Shown: positions 2,317 through 40,943 of the stretch, piece by piece | Numbering within the stretch: position 1 is the first letter of the stretch | Layout of the letters: each line of letters begins with the position of its first letter | Assembly: GCA_963281255.1 (NCBI GenBank) | Contig: OY725505.1 | Location: 1 to 64,000, forward strand | Direction: 5' to 3' | Length of the DNA: 64,000 nt | From: Aphrocallistes beatrix | Lineage: Eukaryota > Porifera > Hexactinellida > Sceptrulophora > Aphrocallistidae | Translations under genes and position numbers: made by a program | The notes under the pieces: model-generated | Told to the model about the DNA's origin: nothing | The model's database searches: none | What the model saw: only the letters and a program-made list of their open reading frames with translations

Positions 2317-3800
2317 TTTCAATCCGAAATTTAGATCATTTTTCCATGGTCCAATCATAGACGATGAACAATTATAAATATTTTCTGAAGTTATATGTTC
2401 TTATCCATATTCCAAGAATGATTCCGGTGTGAGATACACTCTGTAATGAAATTATTGAGAATCAGGAAAATCTTTTAAAATAAAACTGAACCACTTATGT
2501 TGCTAGCTTTAATTTGCTATTTTTCCAAATAATTCTTCGCAGTTTTCTTCATTCTTTTCAATTATTTGATTGATGTTGTGGATATAATGTTACTGTTTCC
2601 TGCTACTCTAACACAAAAGTAACGTGTTGTTTTTGAATTGAATTATTTCAGGGAGGTCTGTTGATTTATTTTCCCTAAAATTTACTTCACTGCACGCTGT
2701 TCCACATTTAAGACGATTGCAAATGCTATTTGGTATTGCTTATGTTGCCAGGTTAGATCTCCTCAAATATGTATCGAAATTTTGTAAATTTTCAAGTGAT
2801 ATCGATTATAACAGTAAGACAGAAGTATTTAGAGCTGTTATCTATCTTATAATTAATTAAAGTAGAGCCAGCCGCGCAGCGCAAGCAAGCGAACCGCACT
2901 TGTACGAATTAAATCTCTCAACTCATTTAGCAGTTTTAACGCTGCTCTTCTTTTCTAATGATGGATTTTTTTCGTCGCAAAAGTTCAGAAAATAGGTGGT
3001 AAAGAAGTTTGCTATAAGCTTGGAACTTAACCTTCATCACATTTATATTTATGATGAATCAATTGATTTAATACAAACGCTAGAAATTAATTTAGATCAT
3101 TTATCCATGGTCCAATCACAAGAAAATGGAAAATTAGAAATATTTTCTGAAGCTATATGCTATTATCCATGGTTTAAGAATTATTTGGTTAATCGAGATG
3201 GATTCTGCAGCTGAATATGCTGGTGAGACTTAAGGACAGTCTTTTAAGATTCCTGCGAAGTTCCATCCATCCAGGAGCTACGCGTTTCTTGTGCGTATGT
3301 TTGGATACAAGGGAGAGAAACGTTCGTTTACTACCATCAGAGTGCACTCGGGGCCGGCTGTTCCGCAAGCCCGCAACATACCGCACAATACATACTACTC
3401 GACCACTGTCAGGTCAGTCAGGTCAGTCATTAACAACATAACTCACCATCTTGTTAAGACCATTCGGGCGCAGATTATTTAAATCAAAATTCTTTAACAT
3501 ACAACTATTTCACTTATGTTGCTAGGTTTACTTTGCTTTTATTCCAATTAATTCTTCGTTGTTTTCTTTATTTTTCTCAATTATTGATTAATGAAGTGGA
3601 AAAAGATTTACTCTCCCCTTCTACTCTGAAACTAAGTAACGTGTTGTTTTTGAATTCATTCAGGGGGTTTGTTGATTTATTTTCCCGAAAATTTACTTTA
3701 ATGCACGCTGTTATACATTTAAGACGATTGCAAATGCTATTTGGTATTGCTTATGTTGCCAGGTTAGATGTCCTCAAATATGTATCGAAATGTATATATT
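2317..3800. repeat. Diverged direct duplication (2317-2800 and 3077-3800)
   Basis: Two segments share order and wording: the ATTTAGATCATTT..CCATGGTCCAATCA block (about 2330 and 3090), TATTTTCTGAAG, CTTATGTTGCTAG (about 2496 and 3514), and a long block with AAGACGATTGCAAATGC (about 2708 and 3721). The second copy carries about 250 extra bases (roughly 3206-3480). No convincing gene is seen here. The short open frames are not supported by splice sites or conserved motifs. Confidence 0.8.
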
Positions 3801-4061
3801 AATTTTCTTGTTTTATTCGTTTGAATCAAGACTCAGAGTTGCCTACTTTCACAAGATATATTTACACCATAGCTTTGGAATGGGAAGGTTTAACAATCAC
3901 TAAATATATACTACTTATTCACCCTTTCATTCCTGATTTGTTTCTACCCCATATGACTAATTTAATTGTTATTTCTATAAGAATAAGTTACAATAACATA
4001 CATCGTAACTTATTATGACATCAAACATTAATGTTCACTCTTGTAGACGGTTCTGCTGTAG

Positions 4062-4480
4062 CTGTAACGTTGCTTTCCCGGAGATATGCTGTAGCTGTAA
4101 CGTAGCTTTCCCGAGGATATGCTGTCGCTGTAACGTAGCTTTCCCGGAGATATGCTGTAGCTGTAACGTAGCTTTCGCGGAGATATGCTGTAGCTGTAAC
4201 GTAGCTTTCCCGAGGATATGCTGTCGCTGTAACGTAGCTTTCCCGGAGATATGCTGTAGCTGTAACGTAGCTTTCGCGGAGATATGCTGTCGCTGTAACG
4301 TAGCTTTCCCGAGGATATGCTGTCGCTGTAACGTAGCTTTCCCGGAGATATGCTGTAGCTGTAACGTAGCTTTCGCGGAGATATGCTGTAGCTGTAACGT
4401 TGCTTTCCCCAAGATATGCTGTAGCTGTGACGTAGCTGTAACGAGCTTTCCCGGAGATATGATGTGGTTGTGCTGTAGAT
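4062..4480. repeat. 33-bp minisatellite, about 12 copies, with 99-bp higher-order period
   Basis: The unit reads roughly GATATGCTGTAGCTGTAACG followed by TAGCTTTCCCGGA. Variants (AGCTG versus TCGCTG; TTCCC versus TTCGC; GGAG versus GAGG) recur in a nearly regular three-unit order, giving a 99-bp higher-order repeat. Because 33 is a multiple of three, frames on both strands stay open through the array. The plus frame would give an 11-residue Cys-rich period and the minus frames Ser/Tyr- or Gln/His-rich periods. I see no promoter or splice context, so I treat the open frames as by-products. Confidence 0.9.
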
Positions 4481-4860
4481 ATAGCGTAGGTATCCAGTTG
4501 CTGTCACGTAGCTAGCTGTGATGAGTTGGAGAGAGAAGTCCATCAGATGAGAAGTTTGGAAGAGTGATGGAGAGCGAAAAGGATCTGTTGAAATTGTTCG
4601 AAACTGTGTTCATCACTTGTATATATACTCTACACCGTCCCATGCAGGAGAAGACACCTGTCGCAACCTCCTGTCTATTGCAGTTATAATTAGAACTAAC
4701 TCAGTACTAAACACTTGTCAGAGGCAACACCTGCTTCAAAGGTGTCCGCACTCTAGTCTAGTCGACAGGTGTTTAGTCTTACAGGTGTCTACTCCAGATA
4801 ATGATTGGCAGGTGCCTACTGACAGATGCCTACTGACAGATGCCTACTGCTGTGTGGGAC

Positions 4861-5464
4861 CGGAGATAGTATATATACTGGTAAAGAAGCTGCAGAAACT
4901 ATATTGCCGGCAATATTCGCTACCTTCTTCAACGCTTCACCGCATCACCCCCGGGGGCATCGCTACACAGCCAACTCTCCAGCAGGTCAGTATTATCCTA
5001 CTCTTACACTTGACAAATACTTTACAAATAGACCGACCTGATATTTTCTCTTTTAGAATTCTCACCGTCAGATTCAGGCTGAAGGACTACCAGATCTTCT
5101 GACTGAGGGACTTCCAGATCTTCAGACTGAGGGACTACCAGATCTTCTGACTGAGGGACTACCAGATCTTCTGACTGAGGGACTACCAGATCTTCTGACT
5201 GAGGGACTACCAGATCTTCAGACTGGGGGACTACCAGATCTTCACACTGAGGGACTTCCAAACTGCCAGACTGTCGAGCTAAGGTATGTGTCAAATCTTA
5301 ACGCCATCACTCACTTCTTTCCCATTTTCAATCTAATCAACTCTCTCCTTCTTTCTAGGTGTGAGATGTCTCTAGCCTCATTCCTCACTCATCGCTAACT
5401 TCATCATTTCCTGGGTAGTAGGGTACATTATTTTTCAGTTAGGTCAGTAGACTAGGTTAATAAA
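4861..5464 (+). other. Possible spliced transcript carrying an 8-residue repeat exon
   Basis: Three blocks join in frame: one ending at 4985 (CAGCAG|GTCAGT), an exon 5057-5283 (TTTTAG before, AAG|GTATGT after), and one from 5359 (CTTTCTAG before) that reaches a stop near 5398. A polyadenylation signal AATAAA lies at 5459-5464. The middle exon reads as repeats of LTEGLPDL. No start ATG is seen in frame in the upstream block, which is open from about 4617, so the 5' part is missing or the transcript is noncoding. Function unknown. Alternatively this is chance splice-like sequence around a minisatellite. Confidence 0.3.
5078..5270. repeat. 24-bp minisatellite, about 8 copies
   Basis: The unit GACTGAGGGACTACCAGATC plus TTCT is repeated about eight times with single-base variants (TTCT/TTCA, CTACC/CTTCC). 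The period is a multiple of three, so the plus frame encodes an eight-residue repeat LTEGLPDL. It lies wholly inside the putative exon 5057-5283. Confidence 0.9.
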
Positions 5465-6242
5465 CTTTCAGTGCGCTTTATGAGGTATTCCAAATTATAC
5501 CTCCCGTCTAGGTTCAGTTTATCGTTATCGTGCATACCCCTTAGAGGGGTATAGCTAAAAATTGTTGATTCTATTAGGTTTTGAAATTTTAGAATATTTG
5601 GGGGGAGGGGGGAGGGTTGTTAATTATGAGCTTCAAAGGTTGTCTGTCCATGTGGTCTCCTCAATACATTCGTTAAGATAGGTTAAGGTTCAGCTTAAGG
5701 TCGAATAAGAGAGTAACTCTTCGTTTTCGTTCACGTGTAAAGTTAGGTTATAAGGTCGAATTCGAATATCGTTCAAAATTAAGTTCAGTGTAGGTGTAAG
5801 TTCGAATACCCTCGTATCGTTTAAAGTTCAGTTAAGTTAAGTTTAAATTAATGTCCGTTTTAGTCATAATTTTACGTCCAAAATTCAATCGTACTCATTG
5901 TTGCATCCTAAGGGTATTGGGAGGTCCTTAAATGGTGTCAAGGTATAAGTATAGGTATAGTAAGTATACAGTTAGGTTACATAATGAGGGGTCTCTCAAT
6001 TCGGAGGGGCTCCGGCCTTGACACCCTCCAATTCTAGCTCAGGTTGGGGAAAGGTACATGAATGCGTCCCAAGTGCATTCACAGTTAGCCACAAAACGGC
6101 TGCTGGAACCCTGAGGGGTCAACCTGAGTAATTAACTATAGGAACGGGCGGGAGGGAAACATAGAAGGGGCATACACAGCAGGGGGGTCCATAGTTCGGC
6201 GACCGGAGAGAAAAGGATGGGGGTAGAGCCGGGGCGGACTAA
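5465..6242. other. Spacer with no gene recognised
   Basis: I see no open frame with splice support. The sequence has scattered GTTAGGT / AAGGTTCAG / GGTCGAA words at about 5440-5850, suggesting an old degenerate simple repeat, and a G-rich tract near 5600. Confidence 0.5.
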
Positions 6243-6484
6243 CACGGACCGCGCCACTACACTGACGGAGGAGCTACACGGACCGCGTCACTACACTGAT
6301 GGAGGAGCTACACGGACCGCGTCACTACACTGATGGAGGAGCTACACGGACCGCGTCACTACACTGATGGAGGAGCTACACGGACCGCGTCACTACACTG
6401 ACGGAGGAGCTACACGGACCGCGTTAATACACTGATGGAGGAGCTACACGGACCGCGTTAATACACTGATGGAGGAGCTACACG
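6243..6484. repeat. 34-bp minisatellite, 7 copies
   Basis: Unit CACGGACCGCGTCACTACAC followed by TGATGGAGGAGCTA, starting at 6243 and repeating every 34 bases for seven copies. Variation is limited to GCGCC/GCGTC/GCGTTA and GACG/GATG. The period is not a multiple of three. An AATAAA lies downstream at 6548-6553, so the array may sit in a transcript, but no gene is recognised. Confidence 0.9.
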
Positions 6485-7264
6485 TACAACGGTTTTGTGT
6501 ATTTTATTTTTATGTCATGTATGCGTATTGCTACTTTGTATCGTAATAATAAAGTGTAATTAAATCAACTGAACTCTTGTCCCAATAATTAAAACCTTTC
6601 AAATACTTATGGTCTCCATAGCAAATAACACAATAAGGTGAAATAACATTTTTAAGTATACATACTTTAGCTTTCTTACCTAGCAACATAAGCGCATCGT
6701 GTATCTTATAACTTTACATCAGTACAATGCGTCTATTTGTTACGAGACTTGTATCTTCCTATGTACTCCGTTATACGGTTCTGTCCCTCACAGATACATA
6801 TTTGTTGATCAATTAGTTCATTTTCCGGTCTGTATAAACTTCAAAAATTCCAAATTTCTCTAATAAATCATTGTTTGGCAGAATCCTGCTACCTTTCTCC
6901 TCACTCCACACGAAATGCGATCACCCATAGCTGAATTCCGTAGCAGCATAAGCACCAGATGTCACTGAGGCTGTTCTGAGCTAACTTCTCTAAATATAGA
7001 TTTCTTTACAAAACTATAAATAAATCTAGATGCAAGAAGGAGATGAAATATCATATAATTGATTGCTCCTCTATTCGAGTGTAAGGCTATATTTCTAAGT
7101 GGAGTTGGATTACTGGTTATTGATCCTTGTAATCAACACCACTGTGTTCATTAATATTCATTGAACCATTTTGATAATGGCTAAAAGAATGAATAGAAGC
7201 AACTAACTCAAGAAACTAAATATAGATTTCATTTTTCATCTAAAAATACATACAGGAAGATTTG

Positions 7265-7270
7265 TATAAA
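7265..7270 (+). promoter_or_regulatory. TATA-like box upstream of Rac
   Basis: TATAAA about 80 bases before the Rac start codon. Initiation would fall near 7295, giving a leader of about 55 bases. From 6485 to 7264 I see no gene, only AT-rich spacer with one CCTAGCAACATAAG-type motif near 6684. Confidence 0.45.
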
Positions 7271-7351
7271 TGCAGCCAGCGATTCCAAGGAACACAATTC
7301 ATTCATTTCAGATTACCCCAAGCTACAAGAACAACTCCGACCCTCGCAACA

Positions 7352-8005
7352 ATGCAAGCAATCAAATGTGTCGTAGTCGGCGATGGGTAAGTCGAATCTA
7401 TTCCATTTATCACTAATACCTAAGACATAATTCCGCGTTTAATCATTGCACTTTCTTATAGAGCCGTGGGTAAGACCTGCCTTCTCATCAGCTACACAAC
7501 CAATGCATTCCCTGGAGAGTACATCCCCACTGTCTTCGACAACTACTCCGCCAACGTGATGGTAGACGGGAAGCCAGTCAGCCTGGGACTGTGGGACACA
7601 GCGGGACAGGATGACTACGACAGACTGAGACCGCTCTCGTACCCGCAGACGGACGTGTTCCTGATCTGCTTCTCTCTCGTCAGCCCCGCCTCCTTCGAGA
7701 ATGTGAAGGCCAAGTGGAACCCAGAAGTGACGCACCACTGCCCCAACACGCCCAAGATCCTCGTGGGCACCAAGCTGGACTTGAGAGACGACGACGACAC
7801 GATGAGCAAACTGCGAGAGAAGCGCCTGGCGCCCATCAGCTACCCGCAGGGCCTGCAGATGATGAAGGACATCTGCGCGGTGAAGTACCTCGAGTGCTCC
7901 GCTCTCACTCAGAAAGGCCTGAAGGACGTGTTCGACGAAGGAATCCGCGCAGTCCTCACTCCCAAGCCGCCCCCAAAGAAGAAGTCAATTTGCAGTCTCC
8001 TATAA
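7352..8005 (+). CDS. RAC1: Rac-type Rho-family small GTPase
   Basis: Two exons, 7352-7386 and 7462-8005 (GG|GTAAGT donor, CTTATAG acceptor), give 192 residues, the same length as vertebrate Rac1. Visible are the P-loop GDGAVGKT (split by the intron), switch [23 protein letters not shown], the TKLDLRDD guanine-specificity motif and CSALTQ. The C-terminal tail KKKSICSLL ends in a CAAX box with Leu last, predicting geranylgeranylation and membrane attachment. [18 protein letters not shown] is typical of Rac rather than Cdc42 or Rho. Family role: GTP switch controlling actin and NADPH oxidase. ATTAAA at 8100-8105 is a candidate polyadenylation signal. Its 3' end faces that of the carrier gene. 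Confidence 0.97.
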
Positions 8006-36926: not shown

Positions 36927-39900
36927 CTATAGATTCCAAACCCCAATTGCCAGCCCAATAAACGTCCCCACGAGTATCGCTATTATCAAGAGACTCGCTA
37001 TCACCAAAATAGCCACCACGCAGCATTGCACCTTTCTCCGATTGCTTAACCCTTTACTCGGAGCTTTGAGCACACTGGTCTCTCCTGGTTCCGGACTGGG
37101 CGTGGCCCCCAGCTCGGGGTCCTTAGTTGGGACGGGGTCCTTAGCTGGGTATGGGGCCTCTTCCATATGCTCTGAGCTTGAGCGGGAGAGAACGGGGGAA
37201 ACCACTTTGGAGGCACGCTTTGGTGCAGACTTGAGTTTGTGGAGTAGTGCGGTTGTTATGTGTATGTCCCTATCCAAGTTGTACAGTGTTTCGTTGTCAG
37301 CTGGGAAACTGAAAATGTAGCTTTCCGAAGCTGCTCCCAGTAATGCCCGATTCATGGCGACCTTATCGTTTAGTGGAATCGTCCTCGTCTCTTCTTCGTT
37401 CAGTCTAACGTTTCGATCTTCCAACGCTAGTTCAACTCCCGCCCTGGCTTCTTGGGCTGTTGATTCGTTCTTTTGCATGAATGTGTCTCTGTACTTACTC
37501 AAATACTGCCGCATTCTATACTCGTCGACGTTGCCCAATGCCATTTCATGAGATGAGAAATTTCGCGCGAGTATACCTAGTTTATTCACACCTCCATCGA
37601 TCGCTTCTTTGCATACGTCATCTTTGCTGCTCGTGCTCGCTTCGACACCTCGCACTTCATCCCCTGACATCACATTGAGAAGTGATCTTAGCGCGACTCC
37701 ATCAGACCAGGCCGTAGTGAGGTTGTCCACTCGAATCGGTGCGATCATACAGTTCAACCATAGCAGCAGTTCTTGCTTGCCATACGGCGGAGTTACATGG
37801 CGGAATCTGTTGATGTATGCAGCCATTATCGCTGGCTCGAAGTTCCCATTGATGATCTCCTGGTAGCGGAATGGACACCTGTTACCGAGGTCCCTATGCA
37901 CTCTCGCCAGCAGCTCTTGACCTATGAGTTTGCAATTGATAACATTCCATCAGTAATCAGCAGTGGACTATTCTCTAACTTGTACTTACCTTGCTGTGGG
38001 TCTCCACTATCAAAGTCTGTCGGGACGAATCCAGGCGCGACTGCCTCGATAAGTGCGGCGAGTCTCACTCCGCTCTGCCAATTCTCTCCGAAGTTGTCGG
38101 CCTGCTGTGAGGCGCTCAGCTTCGTGTTGGCCCATTCTAGCAGTTCGCTGTTGAAAGGCCCCAGCAGACTACCGACGTATCCCACGCAGCGCCTCTCATC
38201 CAGATTTCTCGAGGCGTCAAGTCCTAAAAGCAGATGGAACTTAATAAGTCAGACATTCCTATGTATCACATACCTTACTATGACCAATGTGTCAATTAGG
38301 TTTCTTACCTGTGAAGTCAGCACGCACTCCAAACCCGTTTTCTGAAGCCCTCAAAGCGTTGTCCCACTTATCGCTGCTACCTCCTTGTAGCGCTGCTTCG
38401 GGCAGCACATTCGGTCGAATGCTGTTGAGTAGGCCCGCCATCGTATCTCCAGTCCTCCAGTCTGCCTCGAAGTTGTACACGCGTATCACAGGCCACACCA
38501 TCTCGTTAACCCAGGTCAAAAGGTCTGCTTTTTGTTTCTCATATGCCCGCACCTCTTCCTCTAAACGCTGTCGATCTATCGCTTCTTGTGCCAGTCTATC
38601 CCTCTCTATTCTCTCGAGTTCTAGCAACCTTTCTCTCTCCAGCCTTTCTTGCTCACTGATCATTGCCAGCCTTTCCCTCTCCCTCCTCTCTCGCTCACTA
38701 ACTAGATATGCTTCCAGCTTATCCCTCAGGTCCCATAGATACTGAACGACTACCTTCTCATCAACTTTAGGATTAGCAAACTCAGCCGCGGACAGAGGAC
38801 TCGGGTAATCCAACGTGGAATCGATCTTATCCAGCAACTGTTGGTAGTTGCTGCCGTCCTCTCCTCCCTCATGATCGAAGTCCCCATGAAACCCAATGAT
38901 GTATGTGTTCATCAGAGCTCTCAGTCTGGTCCCGTCGTCCCAGTCAGTGGTGAAGTTACTTGCTTTGTGATGTGGGATTTTGCTGTTCACCCACAGCATG
39001 AGTTCTTCCTTGCGCTGAGTGTAGTTCGGGTCTTCTTTGGGCAGAGCTTCCAACCTCTCTTTCAGTCTGAACAGGTAACACCCAATTTCCAAATTGTCCA
39101 CTGCAGGGTCCATCATTTTCTCTGCTGTCATTGGGTAGTTGGTTGGGAGTTCAGCTTGAATCTTATTCAGCAGACCTTGGAGACTGTCTTTATCATTTGC
39201 ATTGAAACTTCCCCAAAATCCGGGGAGGTATGCGTTCACCAACGACCTCAATCGGTCTCCACTGTTCCAATCTGTTGAGAGGTTCTTTGCCTCTTTCTCT
39301 GGGATTTTCTCATTCACCCAATCCAGCAACATTTTCTCAAAAGGCGAAATGAACCCAGAAAGGTAAGTCATCATTGACAGTTGGTCAACGCCTGGATTGC
39401 TCATATCTACTCCCGAAATGAGTTTAGGGACAGCCAGTACATCGAAAGCTTTTTCTACACCAAGTTCGCAATTCTCTATGTCCTCTTCCGCGTTCAGGTT
39501 TCTCGCGTCTATCGCACCAGGGCAGAGTCCATCCACGAGTGCGCACAATGCGATACCGTCGTTCCAGTCCTTTTCAAAGTTGTTTATTTTTCTATTGGAG
39601 AATGAAACGTAATTTTGAGACCTTAAAAGGTGAAAATATTTTAGGTATTTTATACGTGATCGAACTTATTGCCCATTCAAATTGCAACTGCAACAAAGTC
39701 CAAATTGTTTTTATTGCGAAAGGATGTTATGTAAAGTTCTATTATAATTCAGCTAAGAGAAACCATTGCATCCTTTGTAGTCATGAATGGTTTCTGTTGT
39801 GCAAATGGAACTACGTTGTTAATGATAAAACTCACTTTGGATCTATGATGAAGTTGACCCATTTCTTGAAAGATTCGGTTGCAGATCCGCCTCCTTTTCC

Positions 39901-40943
39901 TCCTTCTTTGCCGCCTTTCTTGATTTTGTAGTGTTTAATCAGAGTCCAGATAAGTCCCATGATCTGTTTCTCTTTGCCATCTTTCAGGTCTTCAGCACCT
40001 ATCAATGCGTAATTCAGAATAAACATGTTTATTTGAAAAATTCATTCTTTTGCGTTCTTGTGTGGCTATTCTCACACCATTTTTAGCTTTGAATTAATAA
40101 TTATTGAATCGTTTCTACATAGAAATTAGTTTACCTTCTAGAACTTCTAACATGCACTAGAATTTCGCCCGCGATATCACGAATTTGATTATGCCCACTG
40201 TCTTACGAACTTGCAATGTTGCAGCTCATCAATAACAAATTAGATTATTTGTTCTACCAGCAGAACATTTTATTGGTTTGGTTCTGGGTTGTATTTACAA
40301 AAGGATGTTAAAATTTACTCCTGATGATTTGACCATTCATGTCTTTGGTTATCTGTTGTTTAATTATGCATTATAAAGTCGAAATATGTTTTTCAATTGA
40401 TTTGTGCCGTTTGCAAAAGCAAGCTCTATATTGAAAGTTTTAATAATGCAGTGCTAAACTGCACCGATTAGACTACAATTTTGATTCTCGATACCTTTCT
40501 AATGACAAATATTTGGCTTTCCAAGCATTAATTAATTAACTAATATGTCAGTTCGAAGACTCACCAATTCCCACGAGTTTGATTCCTTCTTCTTTTTGAA
40601 TAAAGTTGAGAGCTTTATACAAATTGTCCAACTTCTGAAACTCTGTTTTCGGCTTCTTGACATAGTCTTTGATGCCTCTCGGGTTGGCGAGGTGGTTCAC
40701 GAGCTCGATTAGATTGACACCGGTAGAGAAATCTATCAGAAGGTCATTCACCTTTATCCCACTCTCGCTCGGTTCTGATATTATGTAATTGGACCAGTTC
40801 CTGAATGTGTTATTCTGGATCTGTTTCCAGTCCTTCTCCGCTTCCGGCCGTGCGACCTCTCTGCGCATCATTGACGTAGTTGGAATGGTTGCAAACTGAT
40901 TTCTCCGATTGGAAGCCCCAGTATCTGGAGTTAATCCTGCCAT
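36927..40943 (-). CDS. Tail-anchored protein with about seven calponin-homology domains
   Basis: Five exons, 40943-40565, 39998-39836, 39591-38309, 38223-37990 and 37921-36927, all GT-AG and in phase, give 1,017 residues. CH1 (about 38-150: EKDWKQIQNNTFRNW, GVNLIELVNHLA, QKEEGIKLVGIG, IMGLIWTLIKHY) and CH2 (about 167-262: FKKWVNFI, NNFEKDWNDGIALCALVDGLCPG) resemble the filamin actin-binding pair. Further CH2-like units follow with LLDWVNEK..DWNSGDRLRSLVNAYLPGF, LMLWVNSK..DWDDGTRLRALMN, LLTWVNEM..DWRTGDTMAGLLN, LLEWANTK..NWQSGVRLAALIE and LLLWLNCM..AWSDGVALRSLLN. An ER/K-rich single helix (about 478-533) sits between units four and five. A hydrophobic span at about 986-1013 followed by only a few residues makes a C-terminal membrane anchor. 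No filamin Ig repeats are present. Inferred role: linking actin or microtubules to a membrane. Confidence 0.85.

What the first reader, a model, noticed from the sequence alone, without database searches (positions are those of the whole stretch)
36927..40943. Seven-CH-domain protein with a C-terminal membrane anchor
A filamin-like CH1-CH2 pair is followed not by Ig repeats but by about five more CH2-like units, an ER/K single-helix spacer and a hydrophobic C-terminal span. I know of no described family with this architecture. The unit core W(V/A/L)N..(D/N/A)W..G..L..L(M/V/L/I)N recurs with regular spacing of roughly 100-110 residues. It lies between two axonemal dynein genes, hinting at a cortical or ciliary-base cytoskeleton-membrane linker. 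The architecture is seen directly; the role is inference.
Basis: partly seen in the sequence, partly recalled or inferred. Interest (0 to 1): 0.78.

Follow-up and report, generated by a model that had tools for sequence, protein, structure and literature searches.

The report
Seven-CH actin-to-membrane linker from filamin
An animal genome that looks like a glass sponge's carries a two-gene family in which a filamin-type actin-binding head is followed by four or five more copies of the same kind of domain, a stiff helix and a membrane anchor at the very end, an unusual layout for a protein that would tie actin to a membrane.

Summary
A five-exon minus-strand gene (36927-40943, GT-AG introns, 1017 aa) encodes seven CH units: six pass Pfam's cut-off, CH3 just misses (25.4 of 26 bits). 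A model built only from other genes' CH units finds all seven; the best of 200 shuffles scores 1.4 bits. CH1-CH2 match the filamin actin-binding domain (E 1e-34); CH3-CH7 match filamin CH2 best. An ER/K-rich helix and a C-terminal hydrophobic span complete it. The main new evidence is a second gene on contig 17 with the same order, introns and anchor but no CH4 (60% identity, dN 0.30): a real two-gene family with six or seven CH domains. The genome also holds two-CH and three-CH filamins with Ig repeats, which suggests descent from a three-CH (Jitterbug/FLN-2-type) filamin; tree support is weak. Most likely role: tail-anchored actin-membrane linker, working like calmin, interaptin or nesprin; filamin, nesprin and fimbrin membership failed a test, calmin orthology was not testable. 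The ciliary hint rests on adjacency alone and was not repeated beside the paralog. Actin binding, insertion and role are inferred.

The parts
36927..40943 (-). whole gene: five exons 40943-40565, 39998-39836, 39591-38309, 38223-37990, 37921-36927; 1017 aa
   Evidence: phases 1,2,1,1, one open frame; same intron places and phases in the paralog
39916..40829 (-). CH1 (aa 39-154; split by intron 1), type-1 CH with a filamin-like last helix (IMGLIWTLIKHYKI)
   Evidence: Pfam 72.9 bits; filamin-B ABD alignment
39339..39882 (-). CH2 (aa 166-265; split by intron 2)
   Evidence: Pfam 67.0 bits; filamin-B ABD alignment
39045..39347 (-). CH3 (aa 263-363)
   Evidence: Pfam 25.4 bits, just under the cut-off of 26; independent HMM 39.7 bits; CH3-CH4 profile hits filamin-A CH2 at 6e-15
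38706..39014 (-). CH4 (aa 374-476), absent from the paralog; closest unit is CH3 of the same gene (42% identity)
   Evidence: Pfam 36.9 bits; alignment to paralog
38535..38705 (-). ER/K-rich helical spacer (aa 477-533; 57 aa with 16 E, 14 R, 1 K)
   Evidence: 13 opposite-charge against 3 like-charge i,i+4 pairs; modelled helix aa 459-552, block means 88-94 over aa 492-531
38153..38534 (-). CH5 (aa 534-632; split by intron 3)
   Evidence: Pfam 31.2 bits over profile positions 3-80; independent HMM 21.6 bits over positions 2-48
37785..38158 (-). CH6 (aa 631-732; split by intron 4)
   Evidence: Pfam 30.1 bits over profile positions 6-54; independent HMM 29.6 bits over positions 4-100
37470..37784 (-). 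CH7 (aa 733-837)
   Evidence: Pfam 31.2 bits; independent HMM 38.3 bits
37266..37469 (-). segment after CH7 shared with the paralog (aa 838-905; 48% identical), no Pfam family over its cut-off
   Evidence: genome search with the last 175 aa finds only these two genes above noise
36930..37025 (-). C-terminal hydrophobic span (aa 986-1017) after a basic RRK, reaching the last residue: candidate tail anchor
   Evidence: hydropathy; helix aa 979-1016, block means 93-97 over aa 988-1017; paralog also ends in a hydrophobic span

Best explanation
It is a tail-anchored actin-membrane linker. The filamin-type CH1-CH2 pair binds F-actin, the C-terminal span inserts after translation into a membrane with the rest of the protein in the cytosol, and CH3-CH7 plus the ER/K-rich helix form a semi-rigid arm between them that sets distance and may hold partners. 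It probably arose from a filamin with three CH domains by gain of further CH2-like units in place of the Ig rod and by gain of the anchor, followed by a gene duplication; CH4 was then gained in the window copy or lost in the other. Shown: the domain order, the paralog and the constraint on its CH units, the sequence kinship to the filamin actin-binding domain. Inferred: actin binding, membrane insertion, which membrane, the arm's role, and the order of events.
For: CH1-CH2 align end to end with the filamin-B actin-binding domain at E 1e-34. The anchor is the only strongly hydrophobic stretch, lies at the very C-terminus after basic residues, and the paralog ends in the same way (peaks 3.37 and 2.87). 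Outside aa 364-476 the paralog is 59.5% identical over 874 codons with pN 0.246 against pS 0.712 (dS about 2.2, saturated), which means long-term selection on the protein; CH1 and CH2 are the most alike parts (79% and 74%). The ER/K-rich stretch is kept (57 aa here, about 97 aa in the paralog) and modelled as one helix even from a single sequence. Precedents for an actin-binding domain plus membrane span: calmin, with a putative transmembrane domain and apparently in the ER (PMC2842298, passages); nesprin-1 (PMC3296292, abstract and passages); interaptin, reported in ER vesicles (PMC11478834, passages; its C-terminal span is recalled). For origin: two-CH filamins and three-CH filamins with Ig repeats in the same genome; an intron at the same place and phase in CH1 in both three-CH filamins (read by eye) and both multi-CH genes, where the two-CH filamins run on in one frame; CH1-CH2 identity of 43-46% to the three-CH filamins against 38-40% to the two-CH ones.
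Against: There is no biochemistry, expression or localisation data. At the anchor the two genes share only 33% of letters, with pN 0.444 against pS 0.478 (39 codons): hydrophobicity is kept, but there is no sign of selection on the letters. The tree placing the family with the three-CH filamins is weak (80/82), and CH3 fits the filamin CH3 units only slightly better than other units (53 and 52 against 51 and 50 bits). The single-sequence structure models gave no confident CH folds (mean pLDDT 51.9 and 42.2), so the fold of CH3-CH7 rests on profiles. A coiled coil instead of a single helix is not excluded (best a/d hydrophobic share 0.44 and 0.39). Isolated CH2-type domains bind actin weakly or not at all (PMC3143143 and PMC1914345, passages), so the role of five of them is open. 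No homologue outside this genome could be searched.
Confidence: 0.6

Rival explanations
1. A LINC-type nesprin: the C-terminal span sits in the outer nuclear membrane and binds SUN proteins, tying nuclei to actin in a multinucleate tissue.
For: Nesprin-1 and -2 combine an actin-binding domain with a C-terminal membrane span (PMC3296292). This genome has two SUN-domain matches and no KASH match. Adult glass sponges consist mainly of a multinucleate syncytium (PMC5684314, passages).
Against: KASH proteins bind SUN through a C-terminal polyproline stretch (PMC3296292). Here the protein ends with the hydrophobic span in both genes. No KASH or spectrin-repeat match in the protein. The KASH search of the genome has no positive control.
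Confidence: 0.08
2. A multivalent actin bundler in the manner of fimbrin: several CH units bind neighbouring filaments and the anchor places the bundle at a membrane.
For: Seven CH units; small-xxx-small motifs in the anchors of both genes (common in membrane helices, no control made) could allow pairing and so more actin contacts.
Against: In the 27-unit tree only CH1 falls with the other CH1 units; CH2-CH7 fall with all CH2 and CH3 units (split 100/100), and the profiles of CH3-CH7 hit filamin CH2 best. Fimbrin-type bundling uses CH1-CH2 pairs (recalled), and there is no second type-1 unit here.
Confidence: 0.15
3. A ciliary-base or cortical linker of flagellated cells.
For: It lies between CASC1 and DNAI1 matches.
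Against: Adjacency only, on the opposite strand to both neighbours. Of 5 open frames scanned beside the paralog (of 19 listed), 3 gave glycosyltransferase-like, epimerase-like and transposase matches and 2 none.
Confidence: 0.1
4. Not one working gene: a decaying filamin duplicate or a gene-model artefact.
For: No transcript evidence was available; CH3, CH5 and CH6 are diverged; the anchor's letters show no constraint.
Against: Intact frame over five exons with canonical splice sites; a paralog with four introns at the same places and phases; pN well below pS in each of the six CH units shared.
Confidence: 0.03

Closest known systems
Jitterbug / FLN-2-type filamins (three CH domains)
   Same: Filamin-type CH1-CH2 followed by a diverged third CH domain (PMC3143143, passages); two genes of this layout lie in this genome.
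   Different: Those carry Ig filamin repeats (PMC3143143). Here four more CH units follow CH3 (three in the paralog), with an ER/K-rich helix and a membrane span, and no filamin Ig match in the protein.
Calmin (CLMN)
   Same: A calponin-like domain expected to bind actin and a putative transmembrane domain, apparently in the ER (PMC2842298, passages).
   Different: Calmin has one CH pair only (recalled); extra CH units or an ER/K arm are not described in the passages seen.
Nesprin-1/-2 and interaptin
   Same: N-terminal actin-binding domain, long arm, C-terminal membrane span (PMC3296292; interaptin's span recalled).
   Different: The arms are spectrin repeats (nesprins) or coiled coil (interaptin); nesprins end in a KASH domain. 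Here the arm is CH units plus an ER/K-rich helix and nothing lies beyond the membrane span.
Fimbrin/plastin
   Same: More than two CH domains in one chain.
   Different: Fimbrin has two CH1-CH2 pairs and EF hands (recalled). Here there is one type-1 CH and six type-2-like ones, no EF-hand match, and a membrane span.

Membership tests
Filamin | N-terminal CH1-CH2 actin-binding domain of filamin type | tested here: met
   The nine best of 62 PDB matches are filamin-B and -A ABDs, E 1.3e-34 to 3.5e-32, over about aa 36-261
Filamin | rod of Ig-like filamin repeats (PF00630) | tested here: not met
   No PF00630 match in the 1017-aa protein at E up to 1; 56 matches in the genome, none on C19 (window) or C17 (paralog)
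Three-CH filamin (Jitterbug/FLN-2) | third CH domain directly after CH2 | tested here: met
   CH3 at aa 263-363; its best matches outside the family are CH3 of the two three-CH filamins, by a small margin
Three-CH filamin (Jitterbug/FLN-2) | Ig repeats after the CH domains | tested here: not met
Nesprin / KASH protein | KASH domain with luminal peptide after the membrane span | tested here: not met
   No KASH match in the protein; protein ends with the span
Nesprin / KASH protein | spectrin-repeat arm | tested here: not met
   No spectrin match in Pfam at E up to 1
Calmin | tandem CH pair plus C-terminal membrane span | tested here: met
   these features are shared by several families
Calmin | sequence orthology to calmin | not tested
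   No calmin sequence was compared; among solved structures the CH pair is closest to filamin
Fimbrin/plastin | two CH1-CH2 pairs and EF hands (recalled) | tested here: not met
   One type-1 CH only; no EF hand in Pfam
Tail-anchored membrane protein | one membrane span close to the C-terminus and no other (definition recalled) | tested here: met
   Hydropathy peak 3.37 starting at aa 986; at most 1.24 outside the last 60 residues
Tail-anchored membrane protein | post-translational membrane insertion | not testable with these tools
   needs an experiment

The most novel reading that the evidence does not exclude
A filamin-derived family of multi-CH, tail-anchored proteins, perhaps confined to glass sponges, in which repeated CH domains replace the Ig rod as the arm of a membrane-actin tether, and which serves the membranes of a multinucleate body.
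Probability: 0.35. Interest if true: 0.68.

Novelty: new variant of a known kind. Interest (0 to 1): 0.52.

Why it matters
CH domains are among the commonest actin-binding modules, but they come as one, two or four per chain, or three in a few filamins (recalled, apart from the three-CH filamins). Two related genes with six and seven show that a CH2-like unit can multiply in tandem as Ig or spectrin repeats do, and one genome holds a graded series: two-CH filamin, three-CH filamin, six-CH and seven-CH proteins with a C-terminal span. If the anchor works, it is a separate route to the actin-membrane tether made otherwise by calmin, interaptin and nesprin, and easy to test by tagging in cultured cells. 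In largely syncytial animals such as glass sponges, how actin is tied to inner membranes would be a fresh question (my inference).

Tried and rejected
Only the ER/K-rich helix and the membrane helix were confident, so I did not run fold searches on those models. I did not put the paralog into these jobs, because its locus did not come from one of the sources that the tool names.

KASH/LINC reading: tested and not met in the protein; the genome-wide KASH search was empty but without positive control.

Ciliary reading: checked through the paralog's neighbourhood, no support; 5 of the 19 open frames of 95 aa or more in L037 and L038 were scanned.

A third member: a search with the last 175 aa found the window gene, the C17 gene and one chance hit at E 0.66. 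A gene on C1 (locus L014) has three CH units over two open frames, and a separate open frame 1.7 kb downstream with a membrane span; I found no exons joining them and leave it open.

CH tree: the 27-unit tree separates CH1 units from the rest and pairs each shared window unit with its paralog partner, but says little on the order of CH3-CH7 (12 of 24 inner branches open). It does not group CH3 of the family with CH3 of the three-CH filamins.

Organism: unnamed. Nuclear-receptor matches speak for an animal. No Wnt, no Dishevelled and three Frizzled-family matches fit glass sponges only in part: in Oopsacas minuta Wnt and Dishevelled are absent and Frizzled B is the one Frizzled named as present (PMC10280926, passages); Wnt ligands are also absent in Aphrocallistes vastus (PMC10282587, passages; PMC5684314, passages). 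The empty searches have no positive control. The size (100.5 Mb) exceeds both published genomes (61 and 80 Mb); the window's G+C is 42.7% and locus L009's 36.6%, against 36% for O. minuta. This is an inference. Neither genome paper has 'filamin' or 'calponin' in its main text.

Literature: nine searches. The one aimed at CH counts used six phrases and found nothing relevant. Papers seen as passages only: PMC3143143, PMC10280926, PMC10282587, PMC1914345, PMC2842298, PMC5684314, PMC3296292, PMC11478834; all others as search listings.
Full report
The gene. On the minus strand five exons (40943-40565, 39998-39836, 39591-38309, 38223-37990, 37921-36927) join through GT-AG introns into one open frame of 1017 aa. 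The given limits are exactly the start codon and the stop codon. The window is C19:1-64000 of an unnamed 100.5-Mb genome in 28 contigs.

Seven CH units. Pfam finds seven CH stretches. Taken one at a time, CH1 to CH7 score 72.9, 67.0, 25.4, 36.9, 31.2, 30.1 and 31.2 bits against a cut-off of 26: 6 of 7 pass and CH3 just misses with E 1.7e-5. CH5 and CH6 match only part of the Pfam profile. As an independent test I built a model from 12 CH units of an alpha-actinin-like gene (named by eye) and four filamins of this genome and searched the protein with it: 7 of 7 units are found at 55.3, 78.6, 39.7, 58.4, 21.6, 29.6 and 38.3 bits; in 200 shuffles the best hit is 1.4 bits. Profiles of CH3-CH4 (three sequences) and of CH5-CH7 (six sequences), paralog units included, find filamin-A CH2 as the best solved structure, E 6e-15 and 2e-18.

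Other parts. CH1-CH2 align with the filamin-B actin-binding domain over aa 36-261 at E 1e-34, ahead of a 'Calponin homology domain protein putative' at 4e-30 and alpha-actinin-2 at 2.5e-29. Between CH4 and CH5 lie 57 residues with 16 E, 14 R and 1 K, with 13 opposite-charge against 3 like-charge i,i+4 pairs; a single-sequence model makes one helix of aa 459-552. A coiled coil is not excluded. The last 32 residues are the only strongly hydrophobic stretch, follow a basic RRK, and are modelled as a confident helix; nothing lies beyond them.

The paralog. Contig 17 holds a second gene (L009, exons 3333-3708, 3966-4125, 4927-5990, 6266-6499, 6574-7529; 929 aa) with the same order, four introns at the same places and phases (1, 2, 1, 1) and a C-terminal hydrophobic span, but without CH4 and with a longer ER/K-rich stretch of about 97 aa. 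Pfam finds 6 CH stretches in it. Over 874 aligned codons outside aa 364-476 the two are 59.5% identical with pN 0.246 and pS 0.712, dN 0.30 against a saturated dS near 2.2. CH1 and CH2 are the most alike (79% and 74%). The anchor is the least alike (33%), and there pN 0.444 and pS 0.478 are about equal over 39 codons: the hydrophobic character is kept, the letters are not. A search of the genome with the last 175 aa finds only these two genes above noise. CH4 is closest to CH3 of the same gene (42%), so it may be a local duplication, or the paralog may have lost it.

Origin. The genome also has two filamins with CH1-CH2 directly followed by Ig repeats (C16 near 1960000, C8 near 4300000) and two with CH1-CH2-CH3 followed by Ig repeats (C16 near 1750000 and 1736000-1742000; the second is joined across a long intron by my reading). 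Three-CH filamins are known from Drosophila Jitterbug and C. elegans FLN-2, whose third CH is not required for localisation to actin in FLN-2 (PMC3143143, passages). The multi-CH genes and the three-CH filamins share an intron at the same place and phase in CH1 (after LV(G/N)I), where the two-CH filamins have one open frame. CH1-CH2 identity is 43-46% to the three-CH and 38-40% to the two-CH filamins. The tree agrees but weakly (80/82), and the single-unit tree does not group the CH3 units. I take descent from a three-CH filamin as likely, not proven.

Neighbourhood and organism. To the left lies CASC1 and to the right DNAI1 (E 5e-37), both on the plus strand. Five open frames scanned beside the paralog, of 19 listed, gave no dynein-related match, so I give the ciliary hint little weight. 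Nuclear receptors are present, Wnt and Dishevelled not found, three Frizzled-family matches found. This fits glass sponges in the main, though Oopsacas is described with Frizzled B only, and the empty searches lack a positive control.

How it probably works. CH1-CH2 grips F-actin; the C-terminus sits in a membrane as a tail anchor; five CH2-like units and an ER/K-rich helix hold the two apart and may dock partners. Calmin, interaptin and nesprin-1 are precedents for this plan with other arms. By the tests made here it is not a filamin (no Ig rod), not a nesprin (no KASH, no spectrin repeats) and not a fimbrin (one type-1 CH, no EF hands); orthology to calmin was not tested. Which membrane is not known.

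Limits. No transcript, localisation or binding data; no proteomes of other animals were searchable; the fold of CH3-CH7 rests on profiles because the single-sequence models were poor there.

Noticed in passing
L009 (G000:C17:1074500-1084400), exons 3333-7529, +: Full paralog of the finding with six CH units, ER/K-rich helix and C-terminal hydrophobic span; same introns, no CH4.
   Followed up: yes
L011 4306-6741 (+), G000:C16:1738805-1741240: An 811-aa open frame that looks by eye like a receptor with leucine-rich and EGF-like repeats and a membrane span lies on the opposite strand inside what I read as the first long intron of a three-CH filamin gene: a nested gene.
   Followed up: no
L014 (G000:C1:167000-176900) 3951-4985 and 6647-7189, +: A diverged gene with three CH units, most of CH1 in one open frame and CH2-CH3 in the next; 1.7 kb downstream on the same strand an open frame ends in a membrane span followed by a short tail. 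Whether they are one gene is open.
   Followed up: partly
window 37266-37469: A segment after CH7 kept in both genes (core FPADN.T...LD.DIHIT) matches no Pfam family over its cut-off.
   Followed up: partly
window 7424-8002: Open frame that looks like a Rac/Cdc42-type GTPase without introns (judged by eye, not searched).
   Followed up: no
genome G000: No Wnt and no Dishevelled match, three Frizzled-family matches, two SUN-domain matches and no KASH match; none of the empty searches had a positive control.
   Followed up: partly
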